From a virus, in IMG/VR virus record IMGVR_UViG_3300022074_000031, positions 1-64,000 of that record: DNA of 64,000 nt; one strand, given 5' to 3'. A program made the translations under genes and the position numbers. The notes below the pieces were generated by a model that did not search any database, was not told the DNA's origin, and saw only the letters and a list, made by a program, of their open reading frames with translations. Positions 600 to 11,490 of the stretch are shown in pieces; the stretch's first letter is position 1, and every line of letters starts with the position of its first letter.

Positions 600-809
600 A
601 TGATGATTACACTACGAATTTTGAACGAGATGGGTCATACGACCCTAAGCATTGAGGCATCGGAAGTCATTGAGCATATCCACACCCACCCGACGCATTG
701 GGTGTTCGTGGATGGTGAGATGGTCGCCCGAGAAGGAATTGAAGAAATCAACTGGGATACGGTTCAGTCAGTGGACTTGACGCCAGCAATCGTTGGAGGG
801 GCCTACTGA
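600..809 (+). CDS. Candidate ubiquitin-like (beta-grasp) protein ending GGAY
   Basis: 69 residues from the ATG at 600, preceded by the Shine-Dalgarno-like GGAAGTGA. The sequence reads as beta-turn-beta (ITLRIL..GHTTLSI), helix (EASEVIEHIHT), strand (HWVFVDGEMVA) and a final strand running into VDLTPAIVGGAY. This order and length match MoaD/ThiS/SAMP-type beta-grasp proteins, which end in Gly-Gly. Here two residues (Ala-Tyr) follow the di-glycine, so activation by an E1 would first need trimming, as with ubiquitin precursors. An E1-like gene (4283-4840) and a JAMM protease gene (5343-6017) lie downstream in the same transcription direction. The fold is inferred from pattern only; an unrelated small protein remains possible. 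Confidence 0.45.
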   Translation: MMITLRILNEMGHTTLSIEASEVIEHIHTHPTHWVFVDGEMVAREGIEEINWDTVQSVDLTPAIVGGAY

Positions 810-840
810 AACCCTCCCGATTGTTTCCTATTACCCATCC

Positions 841-885
841 GGGGGTGTCGTTGTGTCCCGACCACATGACGGCATCCCCATTTTT
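841..885 (+). terminator. Hairpin plus T-tract between genes
   Basis: GGGGGTGTCG at 841-850 pairs with CGGCATCCCC at 870-879 (ten pairs including two G-T), with an inner TGTG/CACA pairing in the loop, followed by five T at 881-885 just before the next start. It may terminate or attenuate the small-gene transcript upstream. Confidence 0.45.
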
Positions 886-890
886 GGGTG

Positions 891-1271
891 ATGAAGACCG
901 ACTTTAAGCATTTTATTTCACCCGAAGCCCTCAAACTCCAACTCAATGTCTTGGGTTGGAAACTCATGAATCCCTACATCCATGAAGATGTAGCGGTTTT
1001 CAAACCAGACTTTTACCCAAATAACCATGTTATCGCTTTAGCGAATCGTGGCTACATTTGGGCAAAAGGATATACAATTATAAAATATAAAGACCAAGAA
1101 TTTAATTCTGTCGAGGAATTATTAGACAAATGGCAATACGCATTAACTGACTTTAATAACTGGAATTTTCTAGCAGAGAAAGAATGGGTTTTAACCAAGG
1201 ATGGCAAAGAAAGCCTTTATTTCTTTGATAATCTACAAACCATTCCCCTGCGGAAGAAATACAGGTGTTAG
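891..1271 (+). CDS. Hypothetical protein (126 aa)
   Basis: Starts at ATG 891, with a GTG at 888 as alternative, directly after a hairpin/T-tract. Mixed, aromatic-rich sequence (several Trp, Tyr and Phe) with no motif I recognise and no signal peptide or membrane segment. The gene end overlaps the next start by seven bases, typical of this block. Function unknown. Confidence 0.6.
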   Translation: MKTDFKHFISPEALKLQLNVLGWKLMNPYIHEDVAVFKPDFYPNNHVIALANRGYIWAKGYTIIKYKDQEFNSVEELLDKWQYALTDFNNWNFLAEKEWVLTKDGKESLYFFDNLQTIPLRKKYRC

Positions 1272-1615
1272 GTTTGCGAGAAAGGGAAAAGGCTTGCAGA
1301 CTGATTAGCGATTGTATTCAGTTATTCAATGAGTTAGATAAAAAAGACTTTAGAAGAATTGAACGGTGGGCAAAGTATGCTAAAGTTGATGAAGCATATT
1401 TTACTCCTTTCTCTCTCACCCAAAGTATATACGATTGCCTCTGGTCTATTCCAGAAGCAATAGATGAAGGGTTTTCTAAATATTTAGAGAGAAGAAAAAA
1501 AGAATACAATGAAATATTGGCTTATCATAATAAAAACTGTAAAGAAAAATGTATAGTTTGTGATGATAGGCAAGCAATCAAAAATTTATTGGGGATTGAT
1601 TATGAAAGAAAATAA
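1265..1615 (+). CDS. Hypothetical protein with C-terminal Cys cluster
   Basis: Probably GTG-initiated at 1265, overlapping the previous stop; TTG 1274 is an alternative start. Mostly helical and charged. Near the C-terminus the pattern NKNCKEKCIVCDD gives three closely spaced Cys residues that could bind a metal, perhaps with the His of AYHNKNC. No family recognised. Confidence 0.55.
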   Translation: MLGLREREKACRLISDCIQLFNELDKKDFRRIERWAKYAKVDEAYFTPFSLTQSIYDCLWSIPEAIDEGFSKYLERRKKEYNEILAYHNKNCKEKCIVCDDRQAIKNLLGIDYERK

Positions 1616-1763
1616 TCCTGAATATATTCTTAACAATAGAAAAGGCAACAAAGTTGCCACCATGTGCCGAGTTTGCGGCAAAAAATTATTTTCACCAGAT
1701 GAAATTAAAAAGGAAATGCACGATAAGTGCGATAAAGACAAATCAAATATATATATGATGTGA
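1602..1763 (+). CDS. Small zinc-finger-like protein (53 aa)
   Basis: The ATG at 1602 overlaps the end of the previous gene. The middle holds CRVCGKK and, about 20 residues later, MHDKCDK, so a Cys-Cys-His-Cys zinc site is plausible. A small nucleic-acid-binding or adaptor role would be typical for such viral proteins, but nothing more specific can be said. Confidence 0.5.
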   Translation: MKENNPEYILNNRKGNKVATMCRVCGKKLFSPDEIKKEMHDKCDKDKSNIYMM

Positions 1764-1767
1764 TAAT

Positions 1768-2940
1768 ATGTTGATTAAATTAAAAATAAGAAAACCAGAT
1801 GATAGCGACGAATATTATTATTCAGAAATAGAAAGTGATGCCTTCACAAGCGCGAGAGTTCACTTAAACTACAAGGGATTTCTCTCAATTAATAGAGGAA
1901 GTTATCAATCAAAAGACCCTGTGCATGAAGGAATTAAGTCTTCTGTAAAGCAAATTTTCTCAAAGAGAAGAAACACTCGCAGATATAGATACTCTGGAAT
2001 GTCAAAGGACTTGACATCAACAATCAGAATTAAGAATCTGACTATCTTTTTTCAAAAGAAGGGAGGAAGACACCATTTAAATGGTATTTATCTTTCCTTG
2101 GACAACCTATCAGATGTTTTGGCAAGAGTTATTTATAGGAGTTGTTTTACAGACGACGCAACAACACTGAACAAAGTTCTTTGGAAATACTTACACATTC
2201 CAGAAAATGTTGTTCATGCTCTTGAGAACCGTGTGCCATACTTCTTTTACGAAGATTATGAAAAACACGATGTTCGTCTTAATGTCCAAAGAACCGGTCC
2301 TTCCACCGTTGCATTAGAGATTAGCGATGGTATTTGGGGAGAAATGTCTTTCAAGGAGTTAGATAAATATTGTAATTTTTATGTTCACGAGCAGAAAAGA
2401 GGTTCTTGGCCCTACACATCCCCAAAGAATCTGTTTATGAAATTGATGGGAAGAGAGCCATCAAGAGCAGAATTAAACCTCATGATTGCCTTCTTACAAC
2501 AGAATAGAAAGAAAGACATTGTAGAGAAAAAGGCGTTCCAATTGATTAACGAAATGGTGTCTCAAAGACCCGATAAATTATTCCCCATCTGGAAAGATGA
2601 CAGGTTAACTCACTTATTCGTTAGAGGTAATCATTATGATTGGAAATTAGAGTGTAGAAACTATAAAGATTCTGGAACACAGAATGTTTCTACCTATATT
2701 TATCAACCCACTAGAAGAGGTGATGGAGAAGAAATTGATTGGCGAGGCCCAATTTGTATTGACAATGCCAATAATGATTCCTCTGTTGGCGACCAATTCG
2801 CCGCAAGAGCAATGGCTTTAATAAACGACAACTTTACAATTAAAATTGTAAGCACTATTGATTCTTATATCAGTGGCGAACCTAATGAAAATAGGATGGA
2901 TGAAAATGAAGAGATGCGACGAGTGCGGGATAATAGATAG
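1768..2940 (+). CDS. Hypothetical protein (390 aa)
   Basis: A long, well-formed frame from ATG 1768 with no Walker, zinc or membrane motif that I recognise. It is basic around residues 60-80 (RRNTRRYRYSG), which could contact nucleic acid. The 3' end overlaps the TFB gene in another frame by about 40 bases. Its position directly before TFB suggests an early-expressed gene, but the function is unknown. Confidence 0.65.
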   Translation: MLIKLKIRKPDDSDEYYYSEIESDAFTSARVHLNYKGFLSINRGSYQSKDPVHEGIKSSVKQIFSKRRNTRRYRYSGMSKDLTSTIRIKNLTIFFQKKGGRHHLNGIYLSLDNLSDVLARVIYRSCFTDDATTLNKVLWKYLHIPENVVHALENRVPYFFYEDYEKHDVRLNVQRTGPSTVALEISDGIWGEMSFKELDKYCNFYVHEQKRGSWPYTSPKNLFMKLMGREPSRAELNLMIAFLQQNRKKDIVEKKAFQLINEMVSQRPDKLFPIWKDDRLTHLFVRGNHYDWKLECRNYKDSGTQNVSTYIYQPTRRGDGEEIDWRGPICIDNANNDSSVGDQFAARAMALINDNFTIKIVSTIDSYISGEPNENRMDENEEMRRVRDNR

Positions 2941-3772
2941 TAGTTTTGATGAAGAAATGGGCGAGCATGTTTGTAATGGATGCGGCCTTGTTATCATAAC
3001 AGAAATGTTTGAAGAGACTGTTCATATTTTGAACAGTTCTGGCGAGAACATTCGCTCTGCTGATAAAGGACATTTAGGTTCAATTATCACTGGAGAGGGT
3101 TCCTACAAATTTAATCGCTTCAAAAGAAGCGTTATCCCCCAAAACATTCAGCAGGGTTTGATGCACTGCAATATGGTTTTGGCAAACTTCTCTCCTTCGG
3201 AGTCCTTGAAGGAAAGGGTAGAAAAAATCTACATGGAAGCGTATCGCAAAGGACTTTTTGCGAAATTTTCTTTTGAAGACCGGGCAACGGCAGTGGTCTT
3301 CTATGCTTTGAAAGAAAGAGGAACGCCAATACCGCTCAAGAAAGTGACTCAGGAGTTTGAGGTCAATCCGAAAAGAGTCCGTAAAATTGTTCGTAAACTC
3401 AACAGTTTGTATCGGAATCAAATCAATTTTACGGAGGTTAACCCAGCATATCAGTTAGAATATCATGTGTTGCAGATAACCAAAGATAGAGTTTATCTTC
3501 AACAGTGTTTAGAAGTATTGGCTCGTTTTGAGAATATTGTGAGCAATAGCAATTTTACAAAGAGTAAGTCTTATTATGCTTCTATTTGTTGGATTACAAC
3601 AAATGTCTTCGAAAGAAGTGAGCCAACACGAAAGCGAATTAGCGAGGCGTGCGAATATCATCATTCGTGCATCTATGAACAAACGAAGTCCCTCTTAGCC
3701 TTGATTGGGAAGACTTCAGTAAAACAACTAAGAGGCAAAGATATAAATAAAATAGGTGAAACGAATGTTTGA
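2900..3772 (+). CDS. tfb: Transcription initiation factor TFB (TFIIB-like)
   Basis: About 290 residues with an N-terminal zinc ribbon (Cys6, Cys9, Cys25, Cys28: CDECG...CNGCG) followed by a linker and two helical repeats of the cyclin-box kind (roughly residues 95-180 and 195-290). Archaeal TFB is about 300 residues with this layout. It recruits RNA polymerase to promoters bound by TBP. A viral copy probably steers host polymerase to viral promoters. The start is uncertain: ATGs at 2858, 2885, 2900 and 2906 are in frame, and I prefer 2900 because it lies just before the zinc ribbon and follows AGGATGG. The downstream MazG-like gene overlaps the stop. Confidence 0.88.
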   Translation: MKMKRCDECGIIDSSFDEEMGEHVCNGCGLVIITEMFEETVHILNSSGENIRSADKGHLGSIITGEGSYKFNRFKRSVIPQNIQQGLMHCNMVLANFSPSESLKERVEKIYMEAYRKGLFAKFSFEDRATAVVFYALKERGTPIPLKKVTQEFEVNPKRVRKIVRKLNSLYRNQINFTEVNPAYQLEYHVLQITKDRVYLQQCLEVLARFENIVSNSNFTKSKSYYASICWITTNVFERSEPTRKRISEACEYHHSCIYEQTKSLLALIGKTSVKQLRGKDINKIGETNV

Positions 3773-4088
3773 AAAAGAATGGAATAAATTAGCAAAGAAA
3801 ATCTATACCAATGCGGTAAATCATGGTTTTTGGAAAGAGGAGAGAAATGATGGAGAAGCAATTGCTTTAATGCATTCAGAATTATCTGAAGCGTTGGAAG
3901 CCATGCGAAACGATAATCCTTCTTCAAATAAAATCATTGAATTTAATAGTGTTGAAGAAGAATTAGCAGATGTGATTATTCGCATTATGGATTATGCCTT
4001 TGGTAAGGACTTAGATATAGCGGGTGCGATTCTCGCTAAGATTGAATACAATCAAAGCCGTGAGTTTATGCACGGTAAATCGTTTTAA
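3765..4088 (+). CDS. MazG-like nucleotide pyrophosphohydrolase
   Basis: 107 residues from ATG 3765, preceded by AGGTGA. Shows the all-alpha NTP-pyrophosphohydrolase signature: HSELSEALE (Glu39, Glu42) and, after a 23-residue gap, EEELADVIIR (Glu66, Asp69), the metal-binding ExxE/ExxD pairs. Such enzymes hydrolyse NTPs or dNTPs to monophosphate and pyrophosphate. In viruses they are thought to adjust nucleotide pools or alarmone levels. Length fits a single-domain viral MazG. Overlaps the TFB stop. Confidence 0.82.
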   Translation: MFEKEWNKLAKKIYTNAVNHGFWKEERNDGEAIALMHSELSEALEAMRNDNPSSNKIIEFNSVEEELADVIIRIMDYAFGKDLDIAGAILAKIEYNQSREFMHGKSF

Positions 4089-4100
4089 GGAGGAATAAAT

Positions 4101-4283
4101 ATGAGAGAAGATAAATTAATAACAGGTTTTACTTGTATTTGCCTTGGTGATGTGCCTTTTGGTCATTGTCCAACGGTGGTTCAATGGAAACCAACAGATA
4201 AAACAGCAGAATGTCTTGAGTGTCAGCGAGTCTGGGATTTAGAAGCAATTAGATATACAAAAGAAATGGGAGGATGGGATTAA
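4101..4283 (+). CDS. Small Cys-rich protein (60 aa)
   Basis: Strong ribosome-binding site (GGAGG followed by AATAAATATG). Cys residues are arranged as CICLGDVPFGHC and later CLEC, giving a likely treble-clef or ribbon-type zinc site. The stop overlaps the start of the E1-like gene (TAATG), so the two are probably translationally coupled; a role in the same pathway is possible but unproven. Confidence 0.6.
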   Translation: MREDKLITGFTCICLGDVPFGHCPTVVQWKPTDKTAECLECQRVWDLEAIRYTKEMGGWD

Positions 4284-4840
4284 TGAGAAAAATATTAGTG
4301 ATTGGAGCAGGTGGGATTGGAAGTTTTCTGATTCCTATTTTACACAGAGCAGGATTATATCGAATCTCTGTTGCAGACCCGGACAAAGTTGAGAATAAGA
4401 ATTTATCCTATCAAAACTTCAAGAAGGGACATGTAGGACAAAACAAGGCCATGGTGATGAGGGACGAATACGGTTCCGTGAGCCATGCGAGTACCTATCC
4501 TATTCTTGCAGAATCACAGATGCAAAATTATGATTTGATTATTTGTTGTGTGGACAATATCGGGTTGCGACGAACCCTTTACAACACAAGCGTTAAGTGG
4601 TTAGACTTACGGGCGCAAGGTAGGAACGCCGCACTTGTGAGCCATAAGGCCGACCCGAGGATGTATGATATGCTTTTAGCAGGCGAAGAAGGTTCTTTTA
4701 GTTGTCAAGGAGATTCATGGGATGGAACAAATAAAGGTGTTCATTATATGCAAGTCGCAATTGCAGGATTGGGCGCACAATGGATTCAACGCTGGTTTAA
4801 CGGCGAAGAAGTTAGAGAATATATGGTGGTGAATGTATGA
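4283..4840 (+). CDS. E1-like ubiquitin-activating / ThiF-MoeB-family adenylyltransferase
   Basis: 185 residues from ATG 4283, with GGGAGG upstream; an in-frame ATG at 4274 is weaker. Glycine-rich loop GAGGIG (residues 8-13), acidic adenylate-binding segment DPDKVENKNL (32-41), GQNKA (52-56) and CVDN (89-92) follow the ThiF/MoeB/E1 Rossmann order. The usual NLxRQ is NLSYQ, so the Arg is replaced by Tyr. Cys141 in SFSCQGDSW is a candidate catalytic cysteine that would form a thioester or persulfide with the Ubl. No zinc Cys pairs, so it is a minimal E1 without extra domains. Family members adenylate the C-terminal Gly of a beta-grasp protein. Its neighbours, a JAMM protease and a Myb-like protein, overlap or sit next to it. 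Confidence 0.85.
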   Translation: MRKILVIGAGGIGSFLIPILHRAGLYRISVADPDKVENKNLSYQNFKKGHVGQNKAMVMRDEYGSVSHASTYPILAESQMQNYDLIICCVDNIGLRRTLYNTSVKWLDLRAQGRNAALVSHKADPRMYDMLLAGEEGSFSCQGDSWDGTNKGVHYMQVAIAGLGAQWIQRWFNGEEVREYMVVNV

Positions 4841-5346
4841 GCCGAGGAATAAAATGGACAAAAAGAGAAGAAACATATGTGATTGGTTGGAAATCTCACT
4901 TTGAGAATGAAGACTTTCAAAAATTAGCAGACGATATGTATGAAGCATTCGGTAATCGCCGTTCTGCTCATGCTGTGAAAATGAAATGGAAGAAAATGCA
5001 AGAAACACACGCAATTGCAGAAGAAACTAAAACCCAGACTCATTCATCGGCTTGGGATGAAGAAAAGGATTTCTTTTTGTTGGTTAATTTCTACGATATG
5101 AGCATTGATGAAGTGCGAAATTATTTTGGTTTTAGTTATGCTGAATGTGCTGGTCGTCTTGAACGATTAATTGATAGCACAGAACTGACTCACATAGAGT
5201 TGGTTAAGAAGGCCGCTATGACCGTCCGAGAACGAAAGGAACCCTACATACCCAAGGCTACTTCAAGCCGTAAAGAGAAGCGTCTAATTGCTAAAATGAA
5301 CAAACTCAACGACAGACTCATGCGTCTCCGAGGTGGGGAAGAATGA
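4837..5346 (+). CDS. Myb/SANT-like DNA-binding protein ending LRGGEE
   Basis: 169 residues. The N-terminal part (IKWTKREETYVIGWK ... NRRSAHAVKMKWKKM) has the tryptophan spacing and recognition-helix look of a Myb/SANT-type helix-turn-helix. A second weaker repeat starts at AWDEEKDFFLLV. The C-terminus is basic and ends MRLRGGEE, which resembles the LRGG tail of ubiquitin plus two residues. It is translationally coupled on both sides, to the E1-like gene (ATGA overlap) and to the JAMM gene. It could be a regulator, or a partner or substrate of the E1/JAMM pair; the LRGG resemblance may be chance. Confidence 0.6.
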   Translation: MSRGIKWTKREETYVIGWKSHFENEDFQKLADDMYEAFGNRRSAHAVKMKWKKMQETHAIAEETKTQTHSSAWDEEKDFFLLVNFYDMSIDEVRNYFGFSYAECAGRLERLIDSTELTHIELVKKAAMTVRERKEPYIPKATSSRKEKRLIAKMNKLNDRLMRLRGGEE

Positions 5347-6017
5347 GCAAGAGCGGAGACTGGTTTATTCGGAAAAACCCCGAAGATGATGATTCGGGAT
5401 ATGATGAATGGCTAATGGAAGAGGGCTATGAAGCATGGCTAAAAGATAATGAAGGGGCTAAGAATATGGATATTGAAGAAGCAATAAAGACAATTACAGA
5501 AACAAGAATTGAGGCATGTCGCCATGTTGAAGACGCATGGAATAAATGTTTGATGGAAGCAACTTCATCAGTAAGTTGGGAAGACTTTACGGTTGTTCAA
5601 GATGCTGAACATTCCTTGGATTTGCATGATGCTATTTGGTATGCTTCTTCTGAAATTTTGCCGGGTTTTGAAGTCCAAGCAGTTATTGATTCAAAGAACG
5701 ACATTTATGTTTCTACGGGAACATCAGGCTACGTTGATTATTTGACGATTGACCCCTCAACACTCATTGGGATGAAACTTCCTATCAAGTGTTGGATTCA
5801 TACTCACCCATTTGGAGCCGCCTACTTTAGCGGCACGGATTGGAGAACAATCAACATTTGGGGAGAGAACATGGATTGTGCATATGTTCTCGGAAGCCAA
5901 ATGTCCACGAAAGGCCACTATGGTTTTTGGAGCAAGGACAACAAAAACGAACTTTCCATCTATGAAAATGGAGAACACACACAAACACAAAGAAAAAATG
6001 GAAGTGAAAAACAATGA
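5343..6017 (+). CDS. JAMM/MPN+ metalloprotease (deubiquitinase-like)
   Basis: 224 residues. The core motif HTHPFGAAYFSGTD (His153, His155, Ser163, Asp166) exactly fits the JAMM consensus HxHx7SxxD that binds zinc. A Glu upstream (Glu104 or Glu110) would be the catalytic base. The first 90 residues are acidic and helical without a recognised domain. JAMM enzymes remove or process ubiquitin-like proteins at Gly-Gly junctions (Rpn11, archaeal HvJAMM1, Mec+). Linked through an overlap chain with the E1-like gene, this suggests one pathway; the VGGAY tail of the 600-809 product is a plausible processing site. No signal peptide, so cytoplasmic. Confidence 0.85.
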   Translation: MSKSGDWFIRKNPEDDDSGYDEWLMEEGYEAWLKDNEGAKNMDIEEAIKTITETRIEACRHVEDAWNKCLMEATSSVSWEDFTVVQDAEHSLDLHDAIWYASSEILPGFEVQAVIDSKNDIYVSTGTSGYVDYLTIDPSTLIGMKLPIKCWIHTHPFGAAYFSGTDWRTINIWGENMDCAYVLGSQMSTKGHYGFWSKDNKNELSIYENGEHTQTQRKNGSEKQ

Positions 6018-9594: not shown

Positions 9595-11041
9595 TACTAT
9601 AACTAGCCCAAAGCACACATTATTTTGCATCTTAGACAAAGATAGTTTGAAAGCAAACGGTATCGCCTTGGCTAAGGCAAAAAAATGGATTTCAAGCATT
9701 TTTAATATGTTTGATGATGAAATTGATAATGAGTTGTACTTACACAATGATTTAGGAGAAGTGGTCTATCAGTTAGACCCTTCGGCTGAAACTCAGAAAA
9801 AATATACGGTGAATTATATTCATCGTCTCCTTGAATTAAATTGTAGCAAGTTTGACTCAAAGGAGTATCGAATGATTGAACAGGCTATTCTAAATATGTC
9901 TGCAAACGAACGACGCTGGTTTGTTCGCTATTGGTTGCGAAAACCACGAAACGGAATCAATCGAGGAACCGTTGAAAAAATTCTTGCGAGATATTACCGT
10001 AAGAAAATCACAGATGTCAAAAAGCATTTGAACTTTAATTCTGTTGATATAGTTTCAAACTACTATAATATGGGAGAAGAACCAAAAATGGTTTTAAGCC
10101 ATGGTGGTTTTATTAAGCCTATGCTCGCAAAAGACTTGCCGATGAATAAGTGGCCGACAAAGAAAATCGTTGATTTCAAATATGACGGTAATCGCTATCA
10201 AATTCACAAAGAAGGTCAATCGGTAATTATCTTTAATCGTAAAGGCAAAATTGTTTCAAAGCAATTCCCAGAGGTTGCAGAGATTGTTCGCAATTATGAA
10301 GTGGATAATGTCATTTTTGATGGTGAGATTTATCCCATAAATGAAGATGGTTCTCCCGCAGAACACAAACTGATGGGAACGAGAGTTCACTCAAAGAATG
10401 TAGAGGAGGCCATGGAAAGAGTCGGGGTGAAATGGGTCATTTTTGACTGCCTGAAGTGGGCTGGAGAGACGATTATGACCCTGCCCTATGAGCAACGCCT
10501 TGAGCGATTCAAAGGTAATCCTGACCAAGCACAACGAATGCCGGAAGATGGTGATGTGATGGCTTTCTACAATGTCGCAATTAGTGAAGGGTTTGAAGGG
10601 ATTATTGTCAAAGATGCTTCTCTTCCCTATGAAGCAGGTAAGCGTTCTACTGGCTGGGCAAAATACAAACCTCCCCTGATTGAATTAGATGTTGTGATTC
10701 TTTCAGCGCAATATGGCGAAGGAAAGAAATCAGGCGTATTTGCTACATTTGAAATGGGAGTATCATCGGAGGATGGCTTCCAAAGTATTGGGTATGTTGG
10801 AACTGGGTTTAGTGATATGGATTTAATTTCATTAACAAATACACTACGAAGAAATATTGTGTCTTACGAGAATAATTCGTATTTGGTAAATCCAGTTGTT
10901 GTTCTTGAGGTACGGGCCGATTTAATTTCGAGGGATTCGTCGAACAATATCGGCTTGAGATTTCCACGATGTAAGCGTATTCGTGATGATAAATTCGTTG
11001 CAGACATTAATACTCTCAAAGACTTGGAGGCTATGGAATGA
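9497..11041 (+). CDS. lig: ATP-dependent DNA ligase
   Basis: 514 residues, close to archaeal Lig (about 560). The N-terminal DNA-binding-like helical region (1-200) is followed by motif I KYDGNR with the adenylated Lys at about residue 228. Further nucleotidyltransferase motifs are NVIFDGEI, EGFEGIIVKDA and GWAKYKPP, then a C-terminal OB-fold. It seals nicks with ATP, probably joining Okazaki fragments of the viral replisome. It starts after a good Shine-Dalgarno (AAGGAG) and ends overlapping the next gene (ATGA). A second ligase-domain protein lies at 51856-54795. Confidence 0.95.
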   Translation: MAWTNLARLLQATDRMRPTETVKMFSEGMESFNTITSPKHTLFCILDKDSLKANGIALAKAKKWISSIFNMFDDEIDNELYLHNDLGEVVYQLDPSAETQKKYTVNYIHRLLELNCSKFDSKEYRMIEQAILNMSANERRWFVRYWLRKPRNGINRGTVEKILARYYRKKITDVKKHLNFNSVDIVSNYYNMGEEPKMVLSHGGFIKPMLAKDLPMNKWPTKKIVDFKYDGNRYQIHKEGQSVIIFNRKGKIVSKQFPEVAEIVRNYEVDNVIFDGEIYPINEDGSPAEHKLMGTRVHSKNVEEAMERVGVKWVIFDCLKWAGETIMTLPYEQRLERFKGNPDQAQRMPEDGDVMAFYNVAISEGFEGIIVKDASLPYEAGKRSTGWAKYKPPLIELDVVILSAQYGEGKKSGVFATFEMGVSSEDGFQSIGYVGTGFSDMDLISLTNTLRRNIVSYENNSYLVNPVVVLEVRADLISRDSSNNIGLRFPRCKRIRDDKFVADINTLKDLEAME

Positions 11042-11490
11042 TTGAAGTTGGTGGACTAACCATTATGGAAATAAACGGAAAAAGAAACACCTATCGTTGC
11101 ATTAAAATTCAAAGCGGCATGGCACACCTCAAGAATGTTTTACATGACCAAGGACGACCAACAAAAATTCCCATTGGGGAATGCCCCTTTATGCAGGATG
11201 GAAAGTTGATTGTTCCTGAAAGACCCACTGAGAAAAGAACCCGGACACGGAGCAAAATAAACATCACCGCCATTCTCAAAGAAAACACCGACCTTCAAAT
11301 ATCAAGAACGGCGAAAAACTTTCTCTACGAATGGGTAGAGACAGCCATAGGAAATGTCATAACCAACGCCGAGCAGAACGCTTTGGAGCGGGGAGACGCC
11401 AGAATCACCGCCGCCCATATTCACTGGCTTGAGACAAACGAACGAGTAGCGGGATACTGGAAGCAAAATGAAGACTACATCAGGGATTGA
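11038..11490 (+). CDS. Protein with C-terminal histone-fold-like domain
   Basis: 150 residues. The N-terminal 65 residues are followed by a basic linker (EKRTRTRSK). The C-terminal 70 residues read LQISRTAKNFLYEWVETA, a long helix, then GDARITAAHIHWLE, the same order as an archaeal histone (short helix, long helix, R-x-T-V-x-x-x-D-I, short helix). A DNA-compacting or transcription role would fit the position beside the ligase and clamp loader genes. Start 11065 is an alternative. Confidence 0.55.
   Translation: MIEVGGLTIMEINGKRNTYRCIKIQSGMAHLKNVLHDQGRPTKIPIGECPFMQDGKLIVPERPTEKRTRTRSKINITAILKENTDLQISRTAKNFLYEWVETAIGNVITNAEQNALERGDARITAAHIHWLETNERVAGYWKQNEDYIRD

What the first reader, a model, noticed from the sequence alone, without database searches (positions are those of the whole stretch)
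600..6017. Candidate viral ubiquitin-like system: Ubl, E1-like enzyme and JAMM protease
The plus block encodes a minimal E1/ThiF-like adenylating enzyme (GAGGIG loop, candidate catalytic Cys141), a JAMM protease with an exact HxHx7SxxD motif, and a 69-residue beta-grasp-like protein ending GGAY, where two residues mask the di-glycine. Established knowledge: E1s adenylate C-terminal Gly-Gly of Ubls, and JAMM enzymes process or remove them; archaea use SAMPs with similar partners. Inference: the virus carries its own activation, processing and removal set, acting either on viral/host proteins or as a sulfur carrier.
Basis: partly seen in the sequence, partly recalled or inferred. Interest (0 to 1): 0.9.

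Follow-up and report, generated by a model that had tools for sequence, protein, structure and literature searches.

The report
Archaeal virus ubiquitin-like tagging kit
A widespread group of ocean viruses, probably infecting archaea, carries its own small ubiquitin-like protein together with the enzymes to activate it, remove it and very possibly attach it to other proteins, so these viruses may tag proteins during infection much as eukaryotic cells do.

Summary
Confirmed and extended. The window is a 65-kb magrovirus-like viral record. All three named genes are real. (1) The 69-aa protein folds as a ubiquitin-like beta-grasp (AlphaFold pLDDT 88). Its C-terminal Gly-Gly is invariant in 101 of 101 relatives, encoded by varying codons, and followed by only 0-2 variable residues. 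(2) The ThiF/E1-like enzyme has one invariant cysteine in the loop after the Rossmann core (131/131). (3) The JAMM protease has a complete, invariant active site (131/131). In 20 long records picked blindly by terminase, 19 carry all three and one carries none. In 197 loci the order Ubl>E1>JAMM on one strand never changes. New here: the 390-aa gene between Ubl and E1 (1768-2940) is always present, has an invariant cysteine (123/123) in an E2-like G-x-I-C-x-D motif, and its predicted fold retrieves mostly ubiquitin-conjugating enzymes, although no single match is significant. No rhodanese, MoaE or cysteine synthase was found, which argues against a sulfur-carrier role. Most likely this is a virus-encoded reversible protein-tagging system, with targets unknown. 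The E1 had been noted in archaeal viruses before (RaFAH, PMC8276007); I found no report of the Ubl, the JAMM or the E2-like part.

The parts
600..809 (+). Ubl: 69-aa ubiquitin-like beta-grasp protein ending PAIVGG-AY
   Evidence: AlphaFold pLDDT 87.7, pTM 0.71, order bb-a-bb-a-b; Foldseek list dominated by SUMO, ISG15, ubiquitin and MoaD; Gly-Gly 101/101; codons vary
1768..2940 (+). 390-aa protein with a candidate E2/UBC-like C-terminal domain (about residues 248-365, DNA about 2509-2862) and invariant Cys330
   Evidence: Cys330 123/123; between Ubl and E1 in 200/200 loci; Foldseek 31 of top 50 rows E2/UEV but all E>0.4; hhalign to an E2 profile E=0.0078, 104 collinear columns, Cys330 on the E2 catalytic Cys, 0 of 100 shuffles as good; Pfam negative
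4274..4840 (+). E1-like (ThiF/MoeB family) adenylating enzyme, 185-188 aa, invariant Cys144 (=Cys141 from the ATG at 4283)
   Evidence: PF00899 4.6e-19; profile hits UBA5, Cap2, Uba4, MoeB, NEDD8 E1; Cys 131/131
5343..6017 (+). JAMM/MPN+ protease, 224 aa, E110/H153/H155/S163/D166
   Evidence: all five residues 131/131; profile hits AMSH-LP 2.6e-5; Prok-JAB matched by 34 of 37 members, best 1.9e-5
841..879 (+). 16-bp hairpin with U-rich tail just after the Ubl stop; a similar hairpin of different sequence follows the Ubl in relatives
   Evidence: z -2.8 to -6.2 in the window and four relatives
2900..3772 (+). TFIIB-like protein (zinc ribbon) in the same block, context only
   Evidence: PF08271 4.1e-4, below the Pfam cut-off; Cys6, Cys9, Cys25, Cys28 conserved in 84 relatives

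Best explanation
A virus-encoded, reversible ubiquitin-like protein-modification system. Proposed cycle: the JAMM protease trims the 0-2 residue tail to expose Gly-Gly; the small E1 adenylates the Gly and takes the Ubl onto Cys144 as a thioester; the Ubl is passed to Cys330 of the E2-like 1768-2940 protein (or, if that is not an E2, transferred directly as in archaeal sampylation); it is attached to lysines of host or viral proteins; the JAMM removes it again. Shown: the genes, their invariant residues, their co-inheritance, and the predicted Ubl fold. Inferred: thioester chemistry, the E2 role, targets and purpose. The genes sit in the replication/transcription block with a viral TFIIB, clamp loader, polymerase and chaperonin, so action during early takeover or replication is more likely than a virion role.
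For: Beta-grasp model, with Foldseek hits mainly SUMO, ISG15, ubiquitin and MoaD. Invariant Gly-Gly with variable codons and a 0-2 residue tail. E1 family membership and invariant Cys. Complete JAMM active site with AMSH-like and Rpn11-like profile hits. All-or-none co-occurrence in 20 records chosen by terminase; fixed order in 197 of 197 loci. JAMM kept intact where no tail needs trimming. E2-like protein: Cys330 123/123, E2-dominated fold list, collinear profile alignment with the cysteines matched. No sulfur-relay partners found. Purifying selection.
Against: No activity has been shown. E2 assignment: no Foldseek hit is significant (best E2 E=0.45), hhalign probability is only 5%, Pfam sees nothing, and the canonical HPN motif is absent. 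The E1 has Tyr46 where the aligned E1s have Arg (NLSYQ against NLNRQ, invariant), so its ATP handling may differ. No dedicated E3 was found. The host was not identified directly.
Confidence: 0.72

Rival explanations
1. Sulfur carrier: the Ubl C-terminus is thiocarboxylated (MoaD/ThiS/Urm1/CysO style) for tRNA thiolation, cofactor or cysteine synthesis, and the JAMM releases a product, as Mec+ does with CysO (recalled from memory).
For: Within the Ubl Foldseek list the best TM-score is to a MoaD (3rpf_C, TMq 0.56); bacterial sulfur operons with Ubl+E1+JAB exist (PMC1779556).
Against: No rhodanese, PLP cysteine synthase or MoaE in G000 and 19 relatives; E1 has no fused rhodanese; an invariant-Cys E2-like protein is always present. 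Host enzymes could supply missing parts.
Confidence: 0.13
2. The conjugation machinery acts without an E2 (as sampylation by UbaA), and the 1768-2940 protein is an unrelated conserved replication or host-takeover protein that lies between by synteny. (This is a variant within the best explanation, not exclusive of it.)
For: The whole early block is syntenic, so its position is weak evidence; Foldseek and Pfam are not significant; UbaA performs sampylation as a noncanonical E1 (PMC4895103).
Against: Invariant Cys330 in an E2-type motif, E2-dominated fold list, collinear alignment beating 100 shuffles and 20 non-overlapping decoy families.
Confidence: 0.35
3. The Ubl/JAMM pair is a virion-assembly device like lambda TAPI/TAPK, and the E1 has another role.
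For: Phage tail clusters pair a Ubl with a JAB (PMC1779556); some BFVD hits of the Ubl model are tip attachment proteins.
Against: The genes lie in the replication block, not the tail cluster; they are inherited with the E1; the JAMM has no fused NlpC domain.
Confidence: 0.04
4. RiPP-like or MccB-type chemistry: the E1 modifies a peptide and the small protein is a leader.
For: MccB and PaaA appear among E1 profile hits.
Against: The partner is a folded beta-grasp protein with invariant Gly-Gly and a JAMM is always present.
Confidence: 0.02

Closest known systems
Archaeal SAMP system of Haloferax volcanii (SAMP1/2, UbaA, HvJAMM1/2)
   Same: Ubl with C-terminal Gly-Gly, one E1/MoeB/ThiF-type enzyme, JAMM desampylase, archaeal setting (PMC4895103, PMC4443979)
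   Different: Cellular, not viral; no E2 is described in that system; this Ubl has no significant sequence match to any solved structure; most viral Ubls carry a 1-2 residue tail; a candidate E2 is present here
Bacterial Bil and Bub operons and the 6A-6E E1/E2/JAB operons
   Same: Ubl, E1, E2 and JAMM encoded together (PMC11354881, PMC1779556)
   Different: Those are bacterial, Bil being an anti-phage system; here a virus owns the set; the E1 is a minimal ~185-aa single domain rather than the two-domain BilD type; genes are spread over 5.4 kb with other genes between
PRTRC plasmid cassette (ThiF-related) and crAss-like phage E1/JAB pair
   Same: Mobile-element E1 (TIGR03736 matched at 4.7e-12); in crAss-like DAC15 an E1 at 30% identity lies next to a Prok-JAB protein
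   Different: E1 scores below the PRTRC cut-off (45.8 against 144.75 bits); neither Ubl nor JAMM of this virus has any match in 50,697 phage records
Lambda-type TAPI/TAPK tail genes
   Same: Ubl plus JAB in a tailed virus (PMC1779556)
   Different: Tail cluster, no E1, JAB fused to NlpC
MoeB/ThiF reported as common in predicted archaeal viruses (RaFAH, PMC8276007)
   Same: Very likely the same E1 gene; the authors already suggested ubiquitination
   Different: I found no mention of the Ubl, JAMM or E2-like partners in the passages read

Membership tests
Ubiquitin-like (beta-grasp) modifiers | Beta-grasp fold | tested here: met
   AlphaFold model with bb-a-bb-a-b order, pLDDT 87.7; PDB hits mainly SUMO/ISG15/Ub/MoaD, prob up to 0.98 but best E 0.008
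Ubiquitin-like (beta-grasp) modifiers | C-terminal Gly-Gly, free or after short processing | tested here: met
   101/101 Gly-Gly; tail 0-2 residues
Ubiquitin-like (beta-grasp) modifiers | Detectable sequence homology to a known Ubl family | tested here: not met
   No Pfam hit in the window protein; 3 of 32 members touch ThiS at best E 0.047; no PDB Ubl by profile
Ubiquitin-like (beta-grasp) modifiers | Covalent attachment to targets | not testable with these tools
   needs biochemistry
E1/ThiF/MoeB (PF00899) | Adenylation domain with GxGGxG and the conserved D/N/K/D pattern | tested here: met
   PF00899 68.9 bits against cut-off 28.1; invariant G11, G13, G14, D35, D37, N43, K58, D94
E1/ThiF/MoeB (PF00899) | Arg in the N-x-x-R motif contacting ATP (role from memory) | tested here: not met
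   Tyr46 in 131/131 where aligned E1s have Arg
E1/ThiF/MoeB (PF00899) | Catalytic cysteine after the Rossmann core | tested here: inconclusive
   Cys144 131/131, but the alignment to UBA5 ends there and cannot tell catalytic from zinc position
JAMM/MPN+ metalloproteases | Glu plus HxHx7SxxD active site | tested here: met
   E110, H153, H155, S163, D166 in 131/131
JAMM/MPN+ metalloproteases | Profile similarity to known JAMMs | tested here: met
   AMSH-LP 2.6e-5 and C. subterraneum Rpn11 0.006 by profile; window protein alone below the Prok-JAB cut-off (18.1 against 25 bits)
E2 ubiquitin-conjugating enzymes (1768-2940 protein) | UBC fold | tested here: inconclusive
   31 of the top 50 PDB rows are E2/UEV but all E>0.4; hhalign E=0.0078, prob 5%
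E2 ubiquitin-conjugating enzymes (1768-2940 protein) | Invariant active-site Cys | tested here: met
   Cys330 123/123, aligned with the E2 Cys
E2 ubiquitin-conjugating enzymes (1768-2940 protein) | HPN motif and Pfam UQ_con match | tested here: not met
   no HPN; no UQ_con match
Sulfur-carrier operons (MoaD/ThiS/CysO) | Rhodanese, MoaE or cysteine synthase partner | tested here: not met
   absent in G000 and 19 relatives
Bil/Bub operons | Adjacent Ubl-E2-E1-JAMM operon with a two-domain E1 | tested here: not met
   E1 is a single ~185-aa domain and genes are interspersed; PADLOC hits only the adenylation part

The most novel reading that the evidence does not exclude
A whole clade of marine archaeal viruses encodes a complete four-part ubiquitin-like pathway of its own (Ubl, single-domain E1, divergent E2, AMSH-like JAMM) that tags host or viral proteins to take over the cell: a virus-owned conjugation pathway with a modifier not detected in any cellular genome searched.
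Probability: 0.55. Interest if true: 0.92.

Novelty: new variant of a known kind. Interest (0 to 1): 0.82.

Why it matters
Viruses of eukaryotes hijack ubiquitin, and bacteria use ubiquitin-like tagging against phages. A prokaryotic virus carrying a near-universal set of its own would show the reverse: viral tagging as a takeover tool. It would add a third branch (archaeal viral) to the history of ubiquitin signalling, give a very small E1 and a possible primitive E2 for study, and make it directly testable what abundant ocean viruses of uncultured archaea do to their hosts.

Tried and rejected
Gly-Gly as a by-product of a GGAGG ribosome-binding site: rejected, since Gly codons vary (14 of 16 pairs) and the next gene starts about 80 bp after the Ubl stop. 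By contrast, the common EEE ending of the JAMMs looks like such an overlap. Search bias of the co-occurrence: removed by picking records with the terminase. The one record lacking all genes (G019) also lacks the 1768-2940 gene, so the block is missing there. A weak UQ_con hit at 64585-64782 of the record lies antisense to other ORFs: chance. Cellular origin of the Ubl: only three hits in 84,980 species, all in one Altibacter MAG; at least two of those contigs carry further genes of this viral block, so misbinned virus is the likely source. Named magroviruses were not found in the phage collection. Philosof 2017, the founding magrovirus paper, is not held, so its annotation could not be checked.
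Full report
WHAT THE WINDOW IS. The window is bases 1-64000 of a 65,321-bp IMG/VR virus record. It has two opposed gene blocks: a replication/transcription block on + (TFIIB-like, GroEL-type chaperonin, PC4-like, ATP-dependent ligase, and ERCC4- and PD-(D/E)XK-type nucleases by Pfam; clamp loader, clamp and family-B polymerase by reading the ORFs) and a virion block on -. Relatives reach 91-97 kb. This matches the ICTV description of Magrovirales, the viruses linked to Poseidoniales archaea (opposed replication and virion modules, family-B polymerase, clamp, clamp loader, ligase, GroEL/GroES, 90-110 kb; PMC10768690, PMC12999244). The placement is an inference from gene content: no named magrovirus turned up in the phage collection, where the closest polymerases include those of Halorubrum tailed viruses at about 25% identity.

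OBSERVATION. E1: PF00899 at 4.6e-19; a profile of 32 relatives hits UBA5, MccB, Cap2, Uba4, MoeB and NEDD8 E1 structures. JAMM: the window protein alone is below the Pfam cut-off (E 0.0025), but 34 of 37 relatives match Prok-JAB (best 1.9e-5), and the profile hits the human deubiquitinase AMSH-LP at 2.6e-5 and C. subterraneum Rpn11 at 0.006. The Ubl has no sequence family but folds as a beta-grasp with the element order of ubiquitin and MoaD. Its PDB neighbours are mostly SUMO, ISG15, ubiquitin, BAG6 and MoaD, at modest scores (E 0.008-0.06; best TM 0.56 to a MoaD).

THE C-TERMINUS. In 98 distinct Ubls the sequence after Gly-Gly is 0 residues (17), 1 (12) or 2 (69), never longer, and its letters vary freely while Gly-Gly is absolute. 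An overlapping ribosome-binding site cannot explain this, because 14 of 16 Gly-Gly codon pairs are used. This is what a modifier with a short removable tail looks like. The JAMM stays intact in all 21 distinct pairs where no tail exists, so it must do something besides trimming; deconjugation is the simplest reading.

CO-INHERITANCE. Scans of IMG/VR confirmed 97 relatives of the E1, 224 of the Ubl and 314 of the JAMM. In the 197 loci that hold all three, order and strand never vary (several loci share a contig). To avoid search bias I fetched relatives by terminase and searched 20 of the longest records: 19 have Ubl, E1, JAMM and the 1768-2940 protein; the one exception lacks all four, so the whole block is missing there. 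dN/dS against close relatives is 0.04-0.22 for the Ubl, 0.05-0.10 for the E1 and 0.15-0.22 for the JAMM. In 84,980 bacterial and archaeal genomes the Ubl was found only on three contigs of one Altibacter MAG; one of them (L133) carries all four genes and another (L131) carries the 1768-2940 gene, so misbinned virus is likely.

A FOURTH PART. The 390-aa product of 1768-2940 lies between Ubl and E1 in 200 of 200 loci. One cysteine, Cys330, is invariant in 123 of 123 full-length sequences, in a motif W-x-G-P-I-C-I-D-N that recalls the E2 active site G-x-I-C-L-D. Its AlphaFold model (pLDDT 85.8) retrieves ubiquitin-conjugating enzymes or E2 variants in 31 of the first 50 PDB rows, although none is significant (best E2 E=0.45). 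Profile-profile alignment of its C-terminal domain to an E2 profile is collinear over 104 columns with Cys330 on the catalytic cysteine (E 0.0078, probability 5%). None of 100 column shuffles and none of 20 non-overlapping decoy families score as high. HPN is absent and Pfam does not see it. I treat the E2 role as likely (about 0.6) but unproven.

MECHANISM. Shown by sequence: modifier with Gly-Gly, activator with an invariant Cys, protease with a full active site, and a fourth protein with an invariant Cys, all inherited together. Inferred: trimming, E1 thioester, E2 relay, lysine conjugation, removal. In Haloferax, UbaA and JAMM2 govern proteasomal turnover of the transcription factor TBP2 (PMC4895103). 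The viral genes lie beside a viral TFIIB, so tagging of host transcription factors is an attractive target hypothesis, but nothing here tests it.

RIVALS. Sulfur carrier: possible, but no rhodanese, cysteine synthase or MoaE was found (the controls rang). E2-less conjugation: viable if the 1768-2940 protein proves not to be an E2. Tail-assembly or RiPP roles: unlikely (gene location, folded partner).

KNOWN OR NEW. The E1 gene is very probably the MoeB/ThiF gene that RaFAH called one of the most prevalent in predicted archaeal viruses (PMC8276007). Full-text searches for Ubl, JAMM or ubiquitin in magroviruses found nothing further; the founding paper of 2017 was not available. The chemistry is a known kind (SAMP, Bil, Bub). 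A virus-owned set, its unrelated Ubl sequence, the minimal E1 with Tyr in place of the usual Arg, and the candidate E2 make it a new variant.

Noticed in passing
window 841-879 and just after the Ubl stop in relatives: A strong hairpin with U-rich tail follows the Ubl gene in relatives; its stem sequence changes but pairing is kept (z -2.8 to -6.2), so the Ubl may be the last gene of its own transcript. No Rfam family.
   Followed up: partly
L336 (Bacteroides phage DAC15) 4551-6660: crAss-like phage carries an E1-like protein (PF00899 2e-14) next to a Prok-JAB protein (6.5e-5), all annotated hypothetical: a possible parallel system in gut phages.
   Followed up: partly
window 5343-6017 and other early genes, 3' ends: Many early genes end in E-E-E before the stop, as if a GGAGG ribosome-binding site for the next gene were built into the coding end.
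   Followed up: no
L131, L132, L133 (Altibacter sp. EAC109 MAG): A bacterial MAG in the genome collection holds three contigs of this virus group, probably misbinned.
   Followed up: partly
window 4837-5346: A Myb/SANT-like small protein between E1 and JAMM in part of the clade (PF13837 0.0027), with no conserved cysteine.
   Followed up: no
window 11038-11490: Possible viral histone-fold protein (PF00808 0.0095, below cut-off).
   Followed up: no
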